Shown here: in pieces, positions 8,169 to 38,906 of the stretch
Layout: each line of letters opens with the position of its first letter
Numbering within the stretch: the stretch's first letter is position 1
Virus record (IMG/VR): IMGVR_UViG_3300042914_003711
Location: 1-46,318 of that record
DNA length: 46,318 bases
From: a virus
Direction: 5' to 3' (one strand)
Made by a program: the position numbers and the translations under genes
Notes under the pieces: model-generated
The model's input: only the letters and a program-made list of their open reading frames with translations
Databases searched by the model: none
Told to the model about the DNA's origin: nothing

Positions 8169-9182
8169 TTAGACGAACCTCAAATTGTGCATTTGTGCAA
8201 AAGTTTTGGGGTCTTTATTCAGGAAGTTGTATCCCATTCGAATGTAGTAATTCATGGTTTTACCATCTTGTCCTTCAATTCGATAAATAGGACCACGTTG
8301 ACGATCATAGGAAGTAAATGCTTCCAATCCTGGAGTGTTAATCTTTGCAAAAAGCAACGAAGTAAAGTTCGAGCCAATTGTGGAAACTCCACTTGCGGAT
8401 TCTGTGTTTGGCAAAATCGGATTGATTTGATAGTTAGGATAGAAGTTACCTGGATCGAAGAATCGTGCTCCACGATAAGTAACTACAAAACGATCAAAAG
8501 CATCCCGAGTTGTTTCAAAACCAGAACCAGCTCCAAGAAGTCGAATAGCCGCATTAATTCCTGCAAATGCTTGAGTGTTCAAGAAGATGACTACGCTACT
8601 AAAATCAGTAGAGTTATCACACATGTGTGAACAAATGATTTCAAGTTCATAAACAAGTCTTTGAGCATTTGCCAAAGTCATTGCAGATGGTCGTAAATCA
8701 ATTCCACCCAAGTCTCGCTTCAATTCAGTTGGAATCTTATTTGTAACTGGATTACGCATCCAACCACGGATTCCTTGGAATGATCGAGCATTTCCAGTTG
8801 TCACATCGTTGTTAAGAAACTTGTTGTTAAAATCTCGCGAGAAGATTCCTTGCCAAACTCTTAATTGAAACGTAACTGGATCAGTGATGTTAGCTCCGTT
8901 TTGTTGAACTAATGGATCAATGCTGAACTTGTGGAAAGCCCATTTGAAACTGGATTCAACCGAAGTTGGGTGAGAAAGGATTTCCGTAGAATCCATTTCC
9001 AAACCAGTCCAGTTAATTGTTCCGGCATTTTCACCATGGAAAACTGCATCCCTGATAACATGATGATCAGTCCACTTAAAGTCAAACAAACTCAAAATGG
9101 ATTGGTGATTTGATTGTGGTTCAAAAATTTCGCGGATTTGGGGCTCATTTTGATAACCCGCCGCAAGATCAGTATAAAACAT
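8169..9182 (-). CDS. Major capsid protein, 337 aa
   Basis: This is the likely HK97-fold coat protein. The length is typical and it follows the scaffold candidate. The sequence has a spine-helix-like segment (SAMTLANAQRLVYELEIICSH), a VTYRGARFFDPGNFYP region and a C-terminal beta part (GPIYRIEGQDGKTMNYYIRM) like that of many phage coat proteins. The start ATG at 9182 has AAGGA eight bases upstream, one of the better ribosome sites in this arm. An intrinsic terminator (9210-9250) separates it from the scaffold gene, so a promoter may lie close upstream. No protease or crosslinking motif can be seen. Confidence 0.75.
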   Translation of the reverse strand: MFYTDLAAGYQNEPQIREIFEPQSNHQSILSLFDFKWTDHHVIRDAVFHGENAGTINWTGLEMDSTEILSHPTSVESSFKWAFHKFSIDPLVQQNGANITDPVTFQLRVWQGIFSRDFNNKFLNNDVTTGNARSFQGIRGWMRNPVTNKIPTELKRDLGGIDLRPSAMTLANAQRLVYELEIICSHMCDNSTDFSSVVIFLNTQAFAGINAAIRLLGAGSGFETTRDAFDRFVVTYRGARFFDPGNFYPNYQINPILPNTESASGVSTIGSNFTSLLFAKINTPGLEAFTSYDRQRGPIYRIEGQDGKTMNYYIRMGYNFLNKDPKTFAQMHNLRFV

Positions 9183-9209
9183 AATTCTATTCCTTCATTG
9201 TCGAGGGTT

Positions 9210-9250
9210 AAAAAAATTCCCCTACGCATTAATATATTAATGAGTAAGGG
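9210..9250 (-). terminator. Intrinsic terminator between scaffold and capsid genes
   Basis: Bases 9219-9234 and 9235-9250 form a near-perfect inverted repeat (13 of 16 pairs, centre ATTAATATATTAAT). On the minus strand it is followed by AATTTTTTT. It ends a transcript coming from terminase, portal and scaffold, or acts as a partial attenuator. Confidence 0.65.
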
Positions 9251-9283
9251 AAAAATTGTTTAGGAGGATTACTTTACAAATGC

Positions 9284-9805
9284 TTATTTTTTCTTTTGCG
9301 CATTGACCACTGCTTCCTGATTAAATCCTTCAACTTTTTTATCTAATGGATTTGGATTTCCTTCGCCACCTTCACCTTCTTTCTTAGTAAACGGATTAGG
9401 TGTTGATCTACCAGTTAAAGTTTTCTCTAACAAGCGTGAAATTGCTTCGGCTCTTTCTGGAGTTTTAGGGTCTTGCCAATCTTCAGCAAAATCAGACAAC
9501 AATGCCTTTTCTTCTTCTGTTAGTTTACTAACTTTTTCCTCAATTAACAAACTACTCTTAAACTTCCCAAACAACTCCGAATAGTTTGTATTAAACTGCT
9601 CATTTTTAGTTGTTAATTCGTCTAATTGAGTTTTATGCGTTGCTAAGTCTGTTTCTAATTGAGTTAGTTTAGTTTGTGCTTCTTTAGTTTGTTCAACTTG
9701 TGCGGCCAACGTTGCTACTTCAATTTGCAATTTAGCTTTAGATTGAATTAATTCCTGATAAGTGTCAATGTCAATAGTGACGATGTTTTCTGTTTTATCG
9801 CTCAT
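9284..9805 (-). CDS. Capsid scaffolding protein candidate, 173 aa
   Basis: It precedes the major capsid gene and has the classic scaffold look. A long coiled-coil region (about residues 15-75, IEVATLAAQVEQTKEAQTKL and following heptads) is followed by a charged helix (EKVSKLTEEEKALLSDFAED) and a flexible Gly/Asn/Pro/Lys-rich C-terminus ending QKKK. Such proteins direct procapsid assembly and leave before DNA packaging. The start ATG at 9805 has GAGGAAAAT upstream and overlaps the previous stop (ATGA-type). Because no protease gene is seen nearby, it may exit intact. Confidence 0.65.
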   Translation of the reverse strand: MSDKTENIVTIDIDTYQELIQSKAKLQIEVATLAAQVEQTKEAQTKLTQLETDLATHKTQLDELTTKNEQFNTNYSELFGKFKSSLLIEEKVSKLTEEEKALLSDFAEDWQDPKTPERAEAISRLLEKTLTGRSTPNPFTKKEGEGGEGNPNPLDKKVEGFNQEAVVNAQKKK

Positions 9806-10302
9806 GATTTTCCTCCGAGATTATTTTTAAGTGCGGTTAAATCTGATCCTTCTGTTGGAACAAATTTACTGTTTCTAAACACTGCAACACTGTAAGTGTT
9901 ATCGAATCCCACAAACTTCCATTGTAAACTTTCTTCAAAGGATGGCCCTTCTGGGAATTGTTCACGAATTTGGTCATTTGTAATTTTTAGCAATTCAGGT
10001 CTTTCTCTAAATGCCGCCACATCCTGTTTCATATGCGTAACGGAATCAAAGTTGAATTGTGTTGTAGGTCGTTGATAGCGAATTAAAAAGGGATCGCCAA
10101 TTCCTAAGAATTCCTTTTCCTCTTTAATCTCATAATAGGTTTCACCTGTTTTGCTATCAATAAGAATTTCAATGTCGGTGAAGTGCTTCTTTATAGTTAC
10201 CTGATCTTTCTCATTAACTAATTCACTATAGTTTTCAATTATAGGAATCGACACTTCTTTTGATGGTTTTACTAGTCGGATTTTTAATATACCATTAGTC
10301 AT
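9802..10302 (-). CDS. Unrecognised head-module protein, 166 aa
   Basis: I do not recognise this protein. It lies between portal and scaffold, where phages often encode a prohead protease or a head morphogenesis protein, but no Ser-His-Asp protease signature is apparent. The N-terminus is beta-like (GILKIRLVKPSKEVSIPII). The middle is charged, and near the C-terminus there is a WKFVGFDNTYSVAVFRN segment and a Gly-Gly-Lys-Ser end. It has close spacing to the portal stop and overlap with the scaffold start. It is probably a minor head or assembly factor. Confidence 0.4.
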   Translation of the reverse strand: MTNGILKIRLVKPSKEVSIPIIENYSELVNEKDQVTIKKHFTDIEILIDSKTGETYYEIKEEKEFLGIGDPFLIRYQRPTTQFNFDSVTHMKQDVAAFRERPELLKITNDQIREQFPEGPSFEESLQWKFVGFDNTYSVAVFRNSKFVPTEGSDLTALKNNLGGKS

Positions 10303-10304
10303 AA

Positions 10305-11828
10305 TTATTCGCTCTCTTTTGATTCTTGCCTAGCTTTAGCTTCAGCATCTTTGTTTTTGTTGTTTTTGTTGTTTTTGTCGTTTTTGTTGTTTTCTTTTTG
10401 TTCTTGTTTTTCTTTTAAGTCTTGGATTTGTTTTTCAATTTGCTTGCATTCTTCTTCAGTTGGATCAAGGTCTAGTAAAGCGTTAAATCGTTTAATTGCG
10501 GATGGAATAGTCAAAATTCCAAGGTTCAATCCACTCTGGATCATTTGACTTTCCGTCAATCTATCTCCCGGTCCCATGTAATGAAGTCCACGAGGTCGAT
10601 CTAAATCAACATTAAACTTAATTTCATCCGGTTCAATCGGAAGTTCAATTAATCCCTTCATATTCGCCATTTTAGCAACCAAAATAAAGAGGTCTAACAA
10701 ACCTTCATTGAATTTATCGCGTAATGGCGTCAACTTAGTGATCGCAGGAGTGAATTGGCTTCGAGTCATTTCACTTGTCACATTTCCTTTATTAGTGACA
10801 TCTTTCATTCGATTAATAGTAACTCCAAGTGATTCGTAAAAAAGCATCTTGGCATCTTCTACCCAGCTACGAATATAAGCCTGAAACTTTCCACTAGCTT
10901 CTAAGATTTCAATTTGTGGTGTGACTAATTCCTGAGTTTCCTCATTCATAGTTGAATGAACTTCTAAAGCCTCACCACTTTGTAATGTGTTAATGTTGCT
11001 TGGTGGAATTGCATCCTTAAAAACTTTGATTGGAAATGCTTCGCGAGAATTAGCTTCTTGCATCCAAGCATAAACCAAGTCAATTGCTTTCAGGAGTTTA
11101 AACCGTCCATCTAAATCAAGAGAAACAACTCGCGTAGAACTCTTTTTGTGATTAGTGAACAAAACTCCCGGAATAGTTCCCAACTCGTTTGGAATAACTC
11201 GATCAATGTCACTTGGAGTCATCCCCATCATAGCTTTCCAGAAAGTTTCTTTATAACTATATGGATATTCGTCGTAGTCGTACACACTGTTTTCAATTTT
11301 AATTGATTTGTAAATTGTTCGTGTTTCTGGAGTTAACAATTCGAATTGCCATGATTTATATCCACCTTCATCAACCACGTAATGGAGAAAAACCGCATCA
11401 AGTGATTCATCATCTACTGAACTGAAAACTGGAGTAAATTGATTGGGTGACAAAAGTTTAAACTTAAATCCTTTGTCCGCGCTCCAAGCTGGCATCACAA
11501 AACACATTCCAAATAATCCCATAAAATTGCGGATCAAATGAAGTCGTAACTTAATGTTTTTCCAAAAATGAAATCGGAACAAATCACTTAAACTATCTTT
11601 TAGTTTATTAGATGTTTCAATTTTAGCCTCTCCTTCAATAATGAATTCAGTTCTAAAATCAATTGCTGTTTGTGCATGTAGAAACCCAATTAATCTACTA
11701 TTTGCAATTAAATCTTCATTGCCAGGTAAACCAAAAGTTGGATATGCACAACTATTATAGTGCGCCCAACTTTCAGCCCCAGCAAGTAACATTGTTCTAT
11801 GATGTTGTGGAACGTAATAGTTTTTCAT
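10305..11828 (-). CDS. Portal protein, about 507 aa
   Basis: It forms the dodecameric DNA gate at one capsid vertex. It follows the large terminase, and size and sequence fit the Mu/HK97/SPP1-type portals: an N-terminal domain with WAHYNSCAYPTFGLPGNEDL, a crown/clip region with KLLSPNQFTPVF, and a stem-helix region (KAIDLVYAWMQEANSREAF). A long C-terminal helical part follows. The C-terminus is a low-complexity Lys/Asn/Asp/Glu tail encoded by reiterated TTTTTGTTG-type sequence on the plus strand (about 10355-10400). I prefer ATG at 11828 (AAGGA upstream); a GTG at 11840 overlapping the terminase stop is possible. Confidence 0.75.
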   Translation of the reverse strand: MKNYYVPQHHRTMLLAGAESWAHYNSCAYPTFGLPGNEDLIANSRLIGFLHAQTAIDFRTEFIIEGEAKIETSNKLKDSLSDLFRFHFWKNIKLRLHLIRNFMGLFGMCFVMPAWSADKGFKFKLLSPNQFTPVFSSVDDESLDAVFLHYVVDEGGYKSWQFELLTPETRTIYKSIKIENSVYDYDEYPYSYKETFWKAMMGMTPSDIDRVIPNELGTIPGVLFTNHKKSSTRVVSLDLDGRFKLLKAIDLVYAWMQEANSREAFPIKVFKDAIPPSNINTLQSGEALEVHSTMNEETQELVTPQIEILEASGKFQAYIRSWVEDAKMLFYESLGVTINRMKDVTNKGNVTSEMTRSQFTPAITKLTPLRDKFNEGLLDLFILVAKMANMKGLIELPIEPDEIKFNVDLDRPRGLHYMGPGDRLTESQMIQSGLNLGILTIPSAIKRFNALLDLDPTEEECKQIEKQIQDLKEKQEQKENNKNDKNNKNNKNKDAEAKARQESKESE

Positions 11829-14548: not shown

Positions 14549-14879
14549 TTCAATTTCGTAAACCTAAATCGGAGACTGGAACTAGACCAACTACTTAAAT
14601 CATTATAATTTTCCATTTTCATTGGCTTGCATGAATTCATTTTAGTTTCTAGATGAGTTCCACTCATTCATTTTAATTTTGTTTTATTTATTTTATTTTT
14701 TTTTTATTCTAACTCACCGGCGACATGTGACACGGGATGGCTCGACCACCTCTCACCCCCCTACGGGGGGTTGAGAAGGTGTTTCGCCTGTACATCCGGG
14801 GAAGTACACATGATCGACAGGGGAAGTACAGAGGAAATGGGAGTTTCGCCCGTCGGTTTCCCCTGTTGAACCGTGAGGT
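14500..14879. other. Noncoding hairpin-rich block upstream of terminase (possible pac/cos region)
   Basis: Apart from the mini-ORFs there is no gene here. The right part (14715-14885) is GC-rich. It holds a strong hairpin (CTCA-CCCCCC/GGGGGG-T-TGAG, 14752-14775), a second hairpin, and repeated GGGGAAGTACA (near 14797 and 14819) and CGCCCGTCG (near 14848 and 14895). The left part is A/T-rich with duplicated gene-start sequence. A noncoding, structured block just upstream of terminase genes is where packaging sites often lie; that role is inference. Confidence 0.35.
14545..14622 (-). CDS. Mini-ORF duplicating the start of the next gene, 25 aa
   Basis: ATG at 14622 begins MKMENYNDLSSWSSSSLR, matching the start of the 147-residue gene (MKMENYNDLNSWKCTNLR) at residue and partly at base level. 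It then ends after 25 codons at a TGA overlapping another ATG (ATGA at 14548-14545). It could be a diverged remnant of a tandem duplication, or a leader peptide. Confidence 0.4.
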   Translation of the reverse strand: MKMENYNDLSSWSSSSLRFRFTKLK

Positions 14880-14884
14880 TCAAC
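14865..14884. other. Perfect 8-bp stem hairpin with GTGA loop
   Basis: GTTGAACC (14865-14872), loop GTGA, GGTTCAAC (14877-14884). On the plus strand the loop is of the GNRA type. No U-run follows on either strand, so it is not a simple intrinsic terminator. It overlaps the 3' end of the gene that stops at 14880. Confidence 0.6.
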
Positions 14885-15311
14885 CGTTGGCTTCGCCCGT
14901 CGAGGATGTTGCCCGAGCCTTGCGCTTTGGTGCATTAGTGATTTCAGTGAACTGATTCATCAATTGTCCAAATGAAGCGTTTAATGCACGTCGCAATTGG
15001 TCTGCATCAACCGAAGCCCAATTAGCTTGTTCCGCAATCAAAACTTCCATAGATGGATTCTCGACACCAAACAAGGTGAGTTTGCGAATCCCCTTCTTTC
15101 CAGTAGCAACTGTGAGTGTTCCGAGAATTTCTGTGACTTCAGCACATGAAGTTGCGTTTGGAAACAGAGTGTCAAAACCCTTGATTTGAGTTTTGAGAAT
15201 AGGTCCGGCAACGTCCCAATCCACTCTTGAAAGAGCATTTGCTAATTTGCTCCACTTTTGGATCGTCGATTGTCGAAATGTTGATTGAGTTTGAGTTTGA
15301 GTGTTTTCCAT
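14880..15311 (-). CDS. Unrecognised protein of the GC-rich island, about 143 aa
   Basis: No family is recognised. From ATG 15311 (GGAAATGATT upstream) it encodes a Gln/Thr-rich N-terminus (MENTQTQTQSTFRQST) and a helical body with WSKLANALSRVDWDVAGP and LRRALNASFGQLMNQFTEI. The C-terminus is basic, Ala/Lys/Arg-rich (NAPKRKARATSSTGEANG). The open frame extends further upstream (ATG 15431, then a Pro/Lys-rich stretch with QKKSRPNPTHK). However, the promoter at 15441-15470 would start transcription near 15434, making the longer forms leaderless. It is the last gene before the hairpin block and terminase module. Confidence 0.5.
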   Translation of the reverse strand: MENTQTQTQSTFRQSTIQKWSKLANALSRVDWDVAGPILKTQIKGFDTLFPNATSCAEVTEILGTLTVATGKKGIRKLTLFGVENPSMEVLIAEQANWASVDADQLRRALNASFGQLMNQFTEITNAPKRKARATSSTGEANG

Positions 15312-32778: not shown

Positions 32779-32863
32779 CCCCCGGTGGTGAAATTGGTAA
32801 ACACAGTGGACTTAAAATCCATTGACTTATGTCTTGCGAGTTCGAGTCTCGCTCGGGGGACCA
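32779..32863 (+). tRNA. tRNA-Leu (anticodon UAA)
   Basis: This is an 85-base cloverleaf. The acceptor CCCCCGG pairs with TCGGGGG (last pair G-U), A is the discriminator, and CCA is encoded. The anticodon stem GTGGA/TCCAT encloses loop CTTAAAA, with TAA at 32813-32815. A long variable arm is typical of class II tRNA-Leu. The T arm is GCGAG-TTCGAGT-CTCGC. The A discriminator fits leucine. It would read UUA, a codon common in this AT-rich genome. Confidence 0.92.
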
Positions 32864-36033: not shown

Positions 36034-36054
36034 TTGGATGGGGTATAGTAAACA
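36034..36054 (+). promoter_or_regulatory. Promoter for the IS110-like gene and repeat array
   Basis: GGATGGGGTATAGTA with -10 box TATAGT (36044-36049) resembles the early promoter GGATGTGGTATACTA at 18027-18041. The leader then contains the hairpin AAGGG/CCCTT (near 36058-36076) and the ATG of the next gene at 36094. This indicates that the gene and the downstream array are transcribed independently of the polymerase operon. Confidence 0.55.
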
Positions 36055-36093
36055 TGTAAGGGAAAAGACGACCCTTTATTAAACAATAAAACA

Positions 36094-36876
36094 ATGGAAC
36101 CAATTCAACAAAATCAAACTACTGAAATTGATGTTACCGAAATTCGTGCAATTAGTGATGCTAGGCAAAAACTGCAAAAGATGCGAATTCAGAATGGTAA
36201 TCGACTCGAAGCATATAAGGCTTTGATGACAGATGAACAATTGGACAAACTTAAAGAAAAGCCATTTTTTATTGATTTGTTTGAAGCGTTTACTATTCTT
36301 GAAAAGAAAGCAGATAAACGAATTGAAAAGGAAATGCGAAAGCATAATATGTGGAACACTGTAACTAGTGTTAGGGGATTAGGCCCAATTCTAGCGGCAC
36401 GACTTCTACTAAACATTGATATTCACCGGGCTAAAAATGCAGGAAGTTTGGTTAAATATGCAGGTTATGCAGTTAATAGAACAACCAATAAAGCAGATGG
36501 TAAAGTCAAGGGTGAAAAACTTTGTTACAATCAAGATTTGAAAGTCACTGTTTATTTAATTGTGTGCAGTTTCATTAAGGTCGCTAATTGCCCATATCGA
36601 CAAGATTACGATAATGCTAAATTGCGATATGAAGAATTGTATCCAGATAAACCTTCTGATCCTAAACTAGTTGATCCTAACAAGGTTTACAAAACTAAGG
36701 CACATAGACATCAAATGGCAATTAGAAAAGTAGCACGTTTGTTCCTTTGTCATCTTCACCAAGTTTGGTCTGAAAAAGAAGGTTTAGAAGTTCGACTTCC
36801 TTATGCTTTGGAACACTTGGGACATAACACTTTTATCTCTCCTCAAGAAAGAGGTTGGCCCGAAATAGAAAAATAA
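36094..36876 (+). CDS. Free-standing IS110-type (Transposase_20) helix-hairpin-helix protein, 260 aa
   Basis: Residues about 90-230 resemble the C-terminal domain of IS110/IS116/IS902 transposases. A helix-hairpin-helix (SVRGLGPILAARLLLNIDI) is followed by LVKYAGYAVNR, a KGEKLCYNQDLKVTVYLIV segment, and AHRHQMAIRKVARLFLCHLH. The N-terminal ~85 residues are a charged coiled coil (LEKKADKRIEKEMRKHNM); the DEDD RuvC-like nuclease domain of true IS110 enzymes is absent. The serine normally found before the GNxxLR-like helix is not apparent (TTNKADGKVKGEK). It is therefore probably a DNA-binding protein and not a transposase. Directly downstream is the 37-bp repeat array, a possible target. Confidence 0.65.
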   Translation: MEPIQQNQTTEIDVTEIRAISDARQKLQKMRIQNGNRLEAYKALMTDEQLDKLKEKPFFIDLFEAFTILEKKADKRIEKEMRKHNMWNTVTSVRGLGPILAARLLLNIDIHRAKNAGSLVKYAGYAVNRTTNKADGKVKGEKLCYNQDLKVTVYLIVCSFIKVANCPYRQDYDNAKLRYEELYPDKPSDPKLVDPNKVYKTKAHRHQMAIRKVARLFLCHLHQVWSEKEGLEVRLPYALEHLGHNTFISPQERGWPEIEK

Positions 36877-36919
36877 AACATTTTGAATTATAACGACTAA
36901 GTACATCTACTGGTGAAAA

Positions 36920-37651
36920 ATGAATTTAACGTGTCAAGTTAATCTATCCACTTTAAATGAATTGCACCTTGTAAGTAAATCTATGTCATCTATATGAATT
37001 GTTAGACACAAGTTAATCTATTTGCTCAAAAATGAATTGTACCTTGAAAGTAAATCTTGATCTCCTAAATGAATTAAACCAAGTAATTAAATATAAGTCA
37101 TGTAAATGAATTAAGTTCAAAAACTAAATGTGAGCTGTTAGAATGAATTGTACCCTGAGAGTAAATCTATCGAAAAAATGAATTTTACCTTACGAGTAAA
37201 TCTATGGCAAAGAAATGAATTGTAGTTTGAGATTAAATATGCGTCACCTAAATGAATTTAGGTTTGATATTAAATATAAGGAACTTAAATGAATTAAAAA
37301 AAACAAGAGTAAAAATGAATTATATTGTTGGATTAAATATACGGAACTTAAATGAATTGAAGATCGAATGAATTGTGACGACAATGAATTTCACATTGTA
37401 AGCTAAATGTTGTTTTGGGAAATGAATTACACATCGTAAATAAGATTTATGAGAACTAAATGAATTAATGAAACCAAGTAAATCTATTATCTTGGAATGA
37501 ATTAAGAAGGATAAGTAAATCTAAAATCACGTAATGAATTGAAGTTAGTAAGTAAATCTACTTGTGACGAATGAACTAAAGTGTAAAAGTTAATCTAACT
37601 TTTCCGAATGAGTTTAAAAGTGAGAGTAAATCTAATCTCACAAAACGAATT
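36920..37651 (+). repeat. 37-bp period tandem repeat array (21 units, two conserved boxes)
   Basis: Box 1, ATGAATT, occurs at 36920, 36957, 36994, 37032, 37069, 37106, 37143, 37178, 37215, 37252, 37289, 37315, 37352, 37368, 37384, 37422, 37460, 37497 and 37534. One-base variants are at 37571, 37608 and 37645. Fourteen of 21 intervals are exactly 37 bp, three are 38, and the others 35, 26, 16 and 16. Box 2, AGTAAATCTA (variants GTTAATCTA, ATTAAATAT, CTAAATGT), begins 17-18 bases after box 1. Bases between the boxes vary. Short units (37352, 37368) lack box 2. The period is close to 3.5 helical turns. No protein frame runs through it. Confidence 0.9.
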
Positions 37652-37654
37652 ATT

Positions 37655-37747
37655 ATGTTTAAAGCAAGCTATAAAGAAATCACAATCGCAATCTTAATGT
37701 CAGGAATCCTAATCGGATTCTTCTATATTGTAGGAGCAGTTCAATAA
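37655..37747 (+). CDS. Single-span membrane peptide, 30 aa
   Basis: ATG 37655, in the last partial repeat unit, opens a 30-codon frame: a basic start (MFKASYKEITIAI) and a hydrophobic helix (AILMSGILIGFFYIVGAV). The stop TAA is immediately followed by the next ATG (37748). Tight spacing and a clear membrane helix argue for a real small gene. Function is unknown; it may act at the host membrane. Confidence 0.5.
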   Translation: MFKASYKEITIAILMSGILIGFFYIVGAVQ

Positions 37748-38869: not shown

Positions 38870-38906
38870 AAAAAAAGAACCCAGTTCGTTTGAACTGGGT
38901 TTTTAT
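38870..38906. terminator. Bidirectional intrinsic terminator between the converging arms
   Basis: CCCAGTTC (38881-38888), loop GTTT, GAACTGGG (38893-38900); flanking A and T residues extend the stem. Five T follow on the plus strand and a T-rich run (TTCTTTTTTT) on the minus strand. It terminates both the rightward arm and the lysis cassette. Confidence 0.88.

What the first reader, a model, noticed from the sequence alone, without database searches (positions are those of the whole stretch)
36034..37651. Free-standing IS110-type domain protein paired with the repeat array
The 260-residue gene holds only the helix-hairpin-helix (Transposase_20) part of IS110 transposases, without the DEDD nuclease domain and without an evident nucleophilic serine. 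It has its own promoter of the early type and ends 44 bp before the repeat array. Full IS110 enzymes act with a bridge RNA transcribed from adjacent noncoding DNA, so a domesticated DNA- or RNA-binding derivative working on the array is a testable idea. I infer the pairing from adjacency and shared transcription.
Basis: partly seen in the sequence, partly recalled or inferred. Interest (0 to 1): 0.72.

Follow-up and report, generated by a model that had tools for sequence, protein, structure and literature searches.

The report
Phage RNA-guide array with nuclease-free TasA
The gene and the repeats after it form a TIGR-TasA system, a recently described kind of RNA-guided DNA-binding machine; this phage carries a nuclease-free version with about twenty paired 9-base guides whose targets are unknown.

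Summary
The 260-aa protein is a Tas protein: NCBIfam TIGR_Tas_endo 171 bits against a cut-off of 100. Its closest solved structures are TasH and TasR, by sequence and by fold. It has no HNH or RuvC domain, so it is of the TasA type.

The array starts 4 bp after the stop codon. It is a dual-repeat TIGR array: edge RAATGAATT, spacer A 9 nt, loop RAKTAAATCT, spacer B 9 nt, a 37-bp unit. Four related loci carry comparable direct-repeat arrays.

Best mechanism: the transcript is cut into ~36-nt tigRNAs, and a TasA dimer uses each one's two spacers to bind opposite strands of a DNA target without cutting it, probably blocking a competing element. RNA processing and DNA binding are inferred from Faure et al. 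2025; the role is my inference. I found no targets.

Spacers within the array resemble each other more than chance. In passing, relatives in mycobacteriophages have stem-loop arrays whose spacers differ by 58% between phages whose tasA four-fold sites differ by 9%. Novelty: new member of a known kind.

The parts
36094..36876 (+). tasA: 260-aa solo Nop-domain Tas protein
   Evidence: NF052498 TIGR_Tas_endo 171 bits, cut-off 100; PDB TasH E 5e-23 and TasR E 1e-18 by sequence; AlphaFold2 model pLDDT 79.7, pTM 0.76, best folds TasH 9w04 E 7e-11 and TasR 9mty E 2e-8
36881..37651 (+). Dual-repeat TIGR array: 22 edge-to-edge segments, unit mostly 37 bp (edge RAATGAATT, spacer A 9, loop RAKTAAATCT, spacer B 9)
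   Evidence: chance test
36881..36918 (+). Diverged first unit, degenerate edge TTTTGAATT, 4 bp after the tasA stop codon
37288..37382 (+). Irregular stretch: a 26-bp segment with a broken loop, one normal unit (37314), then two 16-bp edge-to-edge half units with 7-nt spacers and no loop
   Evidence: direct reading
37643..37651 (+). Terminal degenerate edge AAACGAATT; the start codon of a small ORF follows at 37655
   Evidence: direct reading
38875..38904 (+). First strong intrinsic-terminator-like hairpin downstream, after the MazG-like gene: array and following small genes may share a transcript (inferred)
   Evidence: I1

Best explanation
It is a phage-borne TIGR-TasA system. The + strand transcript of the array is cut within the edge repeats into guide RNAs of about 36-37 nt, each holding spacer A, the loop repeat and spacer B (inferred from the tested relatives). 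A dimer of the 260-aa Nop protein holds one guide by its edge and loop repeats; the two 9-nt spacers open a target of about 18 bp by pairing with opposite strands, and the DNA is sharply bent (inferred). With no nuclease domain (shown) the complex should bind without cutting. The most likely use is a programmable roadblock against transcription or replication of competing phages, plasmids or host defence genes (inference, about 0.45 on its own). The stated confidence is for the identity and the RNA-guided, non-cutting DNA-binding mechanism.
For: Protein: family model, solved TasH/TasR by sequence and by fold, no nuclease family found. Array anatomy: two alternating repeats of 9 and 10 nt with 9-nt spacers, against 8-12-nt repeats and 9-nt spacers in Faure et al. 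(PMC12045711). Both repeats begin R-A and end in U; the first base is A or G in 32 of 36 positions against a background of 0.51 (p 2e-6), consistent with the box D/box C pair becoming R-U. The same method recovers the published Salicola phage array in L003, and arrays beside relatives in L002, L125 and L127. Fast turnover of guides in mycobacteriophage relatives fits targets that change, not a fixed site.
Against: No target was found: paired spacers show no excess over re-paired controls in the window itself. The same holds for mycobacteriophage spacers in 6 carrier and 6 non-carrier phages, and for the Microcystis phage against itself, there without a re-paired control. There is no terminator directly after the array, unlike the published pattern. 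Several segments are irregular, so part of the array may be decayed. No expression data exist. In the published work TasR gave no protection against phage or conjugation, only plasmid loss.
Confidence: 0.85

Rival explanations
1. RNA-guided regulator of the phage's own or its host's genes: TasA guides silence or schedule transcription of resident targets rather than competitors.
For: TasA lacks a nuclease; it sits next to the DNA polymerase in the replication region. Faure et al. list gene regulation as a possible role.
Against: No excess of paired-spacer matches in the phage's own genome or in 6 carrier mycobacteriophage genomes. Guides turn over far faster than silent sites in mycobacteriophage relatives, unexpected for fixed self targets. 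Host genomes could not be searched.
Confidence: 0.25
2. Guided DNA bending that helps recombination or segregation, for instance with an integrase or a ParB-like partner.
For: Faure et al. raise both ideas for TasA; in L127 the gene between the array and tasA may be of that kind.
Against: None of the ORFs beside tasA that I scanned matched an integrase or ParB family.
Confidence: 0.1
3. Free-standing IS110 derivative acting on the array as DNA.
For: Transposase_20 match; the fold also resembles IS621 (E 2.5e-3).
Against: The IS110 model is far below its cut-off while the Tas model is well above; TasH and TasR are closer by orders of magnitude; the array has guide-array anatomy.
Confidence: 0.03
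4. An iteron-like replication origin or partition site in which the repeats are protein-binding DNA sites.
For: Tandem repeats lie near the polymerase gene.
Against: Two alternating repeats with 9-nt variable spacers beside a Tas gene; relatives with unrelated repeat sequences keep the same layout.
Confidence: 0.03

Closest known systems
TIGR-TasA with dual-repeat array (for example Flavonifractor plautii FpTIGR; Faure et al. 2025, PMC12045711)
   Same: Solo Nop-domain protein, adjacent array of two alternating repeats with 9-nt spacers, same strand
   Different: Repeats are A/T-rich (R..U in place of the TasR UG..CCA boxes), unit 37 rather than 36, no terminator straight after the array, irregular half units, about 20 units against the usual 5-15. 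I did not see the FpTIGR sequence itself.
TasA-like gene of Microcystis phage Mvi-JY20 (L002, annotated hypothetical)
   Same: Nearest annotated relative (38% by tblastn); array of edge ATGCGAGCC and loop ACGAAACCC starting at the stop codon
   Different: 36-bp unit, fewer units, array ends in a terminator-like hairpin; spacers not alike
TIGR-TasH of Salicola phage CGphi29 (L003; PDB 21kl, 9w04)
   Same: Nop domain, array straight after the gene
   Different: HNH nuclease at the N-terminus; 8-nt spacers; window protein lacks the nuclease
IS110/IS621 bridge-RNA recombinases
   Same: Shared fold, RNA guide with two pairing stretches
   Different: DEDD domain, single bridge RNA and recombination; IS110 model not passed here

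Membership tests
TIGR-Tas | Nop-domain protein of the Tas family | tested here: met
   NF052498 171 bits, cut-off 100; fold search
TIGR-Tas | Adjacent array of two alternating 8-12-nt repeats with ~9-nt spacers | tested here: met
   Column conservation over 15 of 22 segments, those of exactly 37 bp; parsing of 19 of 22 segments
TIGR-Tas | Box C/D-like motifs that covary between edge and loop and can pair | tested here: inconclusive
   Both repeats start R-A and end U; R in 32 of 36 positions; no structure or covariation test possible with a single locus
TIGR-Tas | Array starts and ends with truncated edges and is followed by an intrinsic terminator (typical, not strictly required) | tested here: not met
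   Degenerate edges at both ends, but the nearest strong terminator-like site is at 38875, beyond further genes
TIGR-Tas | Array processed into ~36-nt RNAs bound by the protein | not testable with these tools
   Needs RNA sequencing
TIGR-Tas | tigRNA-directed DNA binding, one spacer per strand | not testable with these tools
   Needs binding assays; target search gave nothing
TasA subtype | No HNH or RuvC domain | tested here: met
   260 aa; only the Nop-type models match; the match to TasH begins at query residue 15
IS110 transposase | Family model above cut-off, DEDD domain present | tested here: not met
   NF033542 36.5 bits against 140; only Transposase_20 in Pfam
IS110 transposase | Catalytic serine | not tested
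   No residue-level alignment to IS110 was made
CRISPR-Cas | Single 25-36-nt repeat alternating with spacers of similar size | tested here: not met
   Two short repeats per unit; the window was not searched for cas genes

The most novel reading that the evidence does not exclude
TasA arrays are fast-changing guide repertoires. In this phage new guides seem to arise by copying and mutating existing ones rather than by capturing foreign DNA. In mycobacteriophage relatives whole guides are swapped within conserved RNA scaffolds far faster than silent sites change. TasA would then be a cutting-free weapon in an arms race between mobile elements.
Probability: 0.3. Interest if true: 0.8.

Novelty: new member of a known kind. 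Interest (0 to 1): 0.5.

Why it matters
The roles of nuclease-free TasA and the origin of TIGR spacers are named as open questions in the founding paper. This locus gives a large dual-repeat array in which spacers resemble each other, a clue to how arrays grow. The relatives found in laboratory-tractable mycobacteriophages show guide turnover in an experimental system with a known host, where tasA can be deleted and targets sought.

Tried and rejected
Close relatives of the window: single-protein scans of viral contigs and genome contigs, of the DNA polymerase, of alignments A3 and A1 and of plasmids confirmed no relative. A1 in viral contigs gave 3 loci, L125-L127. A loose array pattern gave 119 stretches in AT-rich contigs (not followed up, presumed chance). 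A strict pattern gave 2 contigs whose single matches lie outside any array, so chance. No record in the phages collection is close in DNA over 22001-46000.

Targets: window spacers against the window, both possible orders and gaps 0-2, no excess over three re-pairings. 32 mycobacteriophage spacer pairs against 6 carrier genomes: best match in the two plausible orders 2 mismatches, as in the re-paired control; against D29, Che8, Giles, Bxb1, TM4 and Cueylyss nothing within 1 mismatch either (at exactly 2 mismatches 5 against 1 in the control for one order, 2 against 2 for the other). Eight Microcystis phage pairs against its own genome, nothing within 1 mismatch (no re-paired control). Two BLAST searches with four 18-mers each gave no match, weak evidence because gapped or mismatched targets would be missed. 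The correct order of the two spacers on the target was not certain from the text, so both were tried.

Array growth: a test of whether A, loop and B similarity go together gave only loop-B p 0.017 among six tests and A-B p 0.10, so whole-unit duplication is not shown. No such signal in L002; in L127 for spacer A only. A second array at 14666-14709 suggested by a tandem-repeat hit is not one on reading. Rfam gave only a tRNA.

Full report
What is there. The ORF at 36094-36876 (+) encodes 260 residues. The NCBIfam model for TIGR-Tas proteins matches it at 171 bits (cut-off 100), while the IS110 model stays at 36.5 (cut-off 140). By sequence the nearest solved proteins are TasH of Salicola phage CGphi29 (E 5e-23) and TasR (E 1e-18). 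An AlphaFold2 model from a four-row alignment (mean pLDDT 79.7, pTM 0.76) matches TasH-tigRNA-DNA complexes (E 7e-11) and TasR (2e-8) well ahead of IS621 (2.5e-3). No nuclease family matches, and the match to TasH starts at residue 15, so there is no room for an HNH or RuvC domain: this is a TasA.

The array. From 36881 to 37651 there are 22 edge-to-edge segments, 15 of them exactly 37 bp. Column conservation gives edge RAATGAATT, nine variable positions, loop RAKTAAATCT, nine variable positions; the base at the start of spacer B is still biased to A (12 of 15), so spacer B may be 8 nt. The first unit is degenerate and begins 4 bp after the stop codon. Three segments are short: 26 bp at 37288, 16 bp at 37351 and at 37367. 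The last two join edges with 7-nt spacers and no loop. Unit 37142 is 35 bp with a 7-nt spacer B. The box pattern is far beyond chance (6 matches against 0.00 expected). Both repeats open with R-A and close with U. The first base is A or G in 32 of 36 cases against a spacer background of 0.51 (p 2e-6), as expected if it pairs with the closing U. I read this as an A/T-rich form of the box D/box C pairing described for TasR in Faure et al. (PMC12045711; main text parts 1-4, methods sections 24 and 44 and figure legends read; supplements not seen).

Context. Upstream lies a family A DNA polymerase, and before it replication genes. Downstream come small ORFs and a MazG-like gene, then a strong terminator-like hairpin at 38875. 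No terminator follows the array directly. The record is a 46,318-base virus contig; its host is unknown and no close relative was found.

Relatives. The protein search of the phage collection found 79 records, 75 of them Mycobacterium phages. I examined six related loci. Direct-repeat arrays lie by the genes of L002 (Microcystis phage Mvi-JY20), L003 (Salicola phage CGphi29, the published system, serving as positive control), L125 and L127. L128 (Mycobacterium phage Buttons) has a stem-loop array, and none was found by L126 at 8800-11600. All six proteins pass the TIGR-Tas cut-off, with 115 to 232 bits.

Mycobacteriophages. The ~340 bp before the tasA-like gene of cluster-A-type mycobacteriophages (Fromanvirus; the cluster name is recalled) has no direct repeats. 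It reads as five units closed by palindromic stems (folds, z-scores -1.9 to -6.1 against shuffles). Each unit has the form CCA-N9-CG..CCA-N9-CG (alignment of 8). On that alignment 99.4% of stem cells pair, 6 of 44 pairs have changes on both sides (1 of 500 shuffles reaches this), and sliding the partner destroys it. This is the stem-loop type of TIGR array of Faure et al. Fig. 7. I parsed 57 of 70 units in 14 of the 74 well-covered records; 13 units with variant boxes or stems did not fit my patterns. Over 91 phage pairs the spacers differ by 58.1% on average, the tasA-like gene by 2.7% and its four-fold sites by 9.3%; spacers exceed four-fold sites in 90 of 91 pairs (28 of 28 in the first 8 phages). 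Unit comparisons are bimodal, identical or nearly wholly different, which looks like replacement of whole guides within conserved scaffolds more than slow drift. Old alleles shuffled by recombination could give the same picture. Four-fold sites were taken only where the first two codon bases agree.

Spacers of the window. Spacers at the same position in different units are more alike than column permutations give: variance of pairwise distance p 0.0012 for A and 0.0018 for B with 19 and 18 spacers; p 0.001 and 0.013 with 18 and 17. Row shuffles agree. Examples are GTACCTTGA/GTACCCTGA and AAGGAACTT/ACGGAACTT. Segments 37288, 37351 and 37367 were left out, also 37421, and 37142 for B. The L127 array shows this for A, not for B; L002 shows it for neither. 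Links between A, loop and B are weak. Copying followed by mutation is the simplest reading; selection for related targets is an alternative.

Targets. None found; see Tried and rejected. With 18 bp per guide and unknown hosts the tests have limited power.

Mechanism. Shown here: family membership, absence of a nuclease, array anatomy, strand and adjacency. Inferred from the published relatives: processing to ~36-nt RNAs, dimeric binding, two-strand pairing, DNA bending. My own inference: interference with competing mobile elements by blocking rather than cutting, favoured over self-regulation because self-matches are absent and guides turn over quickly in the mycobacteriophage relatives. Those relatives are only about 27% identical to the window protein and use the other array type, so the transfer is cautious.

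Literature. Searches for TIGR-Tas and related terms list the founding paper and reviews (the Genes 2025 review seen only as listing and abstract start). The only paper in the held library with both 'mycobacteriophage' and 'tandem interspaced guide' is the founding paper, where the word 'mycobacteri' appears once, in reference 41. Its supplementary tables were not seen, so mycobacteriophage loci may be listed there.

Noticed in passing
L128 3680-4015 and the same place in L129-L135, L184-L189: Stem-loop TIGR arrays before tasA-like genes of mycobacteriophages; stems covary, spacers differ by 58% between phages against 9.3% at four-fold sites. The gene is annotated as hypothetical protein, transposase or DNA-binding protein.
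   Followed up: partly
L127 1077-1817: ORF of 246 aa between the array and a 370-aa TasA; by position it could be the ParB-like partner (TasParB) of Faure et al.; no NCBIfam match.
   Followed up: no
L126 9911-10741: TasA-like protein (191 bits) with no direct-repeat array within 8800-11600; stem-loop arrays not excluded.
   Followed up: partly
L002 5690-6050: Unannotated TIGR array in Microcystis phage Mvi-JY20 that begins at the stop codon of the tasA-like gene and ends in a terminator-like hairpin.
   Followed up: partly
window 14720-14900: Intergenic stretch that looks richer in G+C than its surroundings, with repeated GGGCGAA motifs and a GGTTGAACC..GGTTCAAC inverted pair on the - strand; possible regulatory or origin region.
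   Followed up: no
window 32779-32863: tRNA-Leu (TAA) in the replication region.
   Followed up: no
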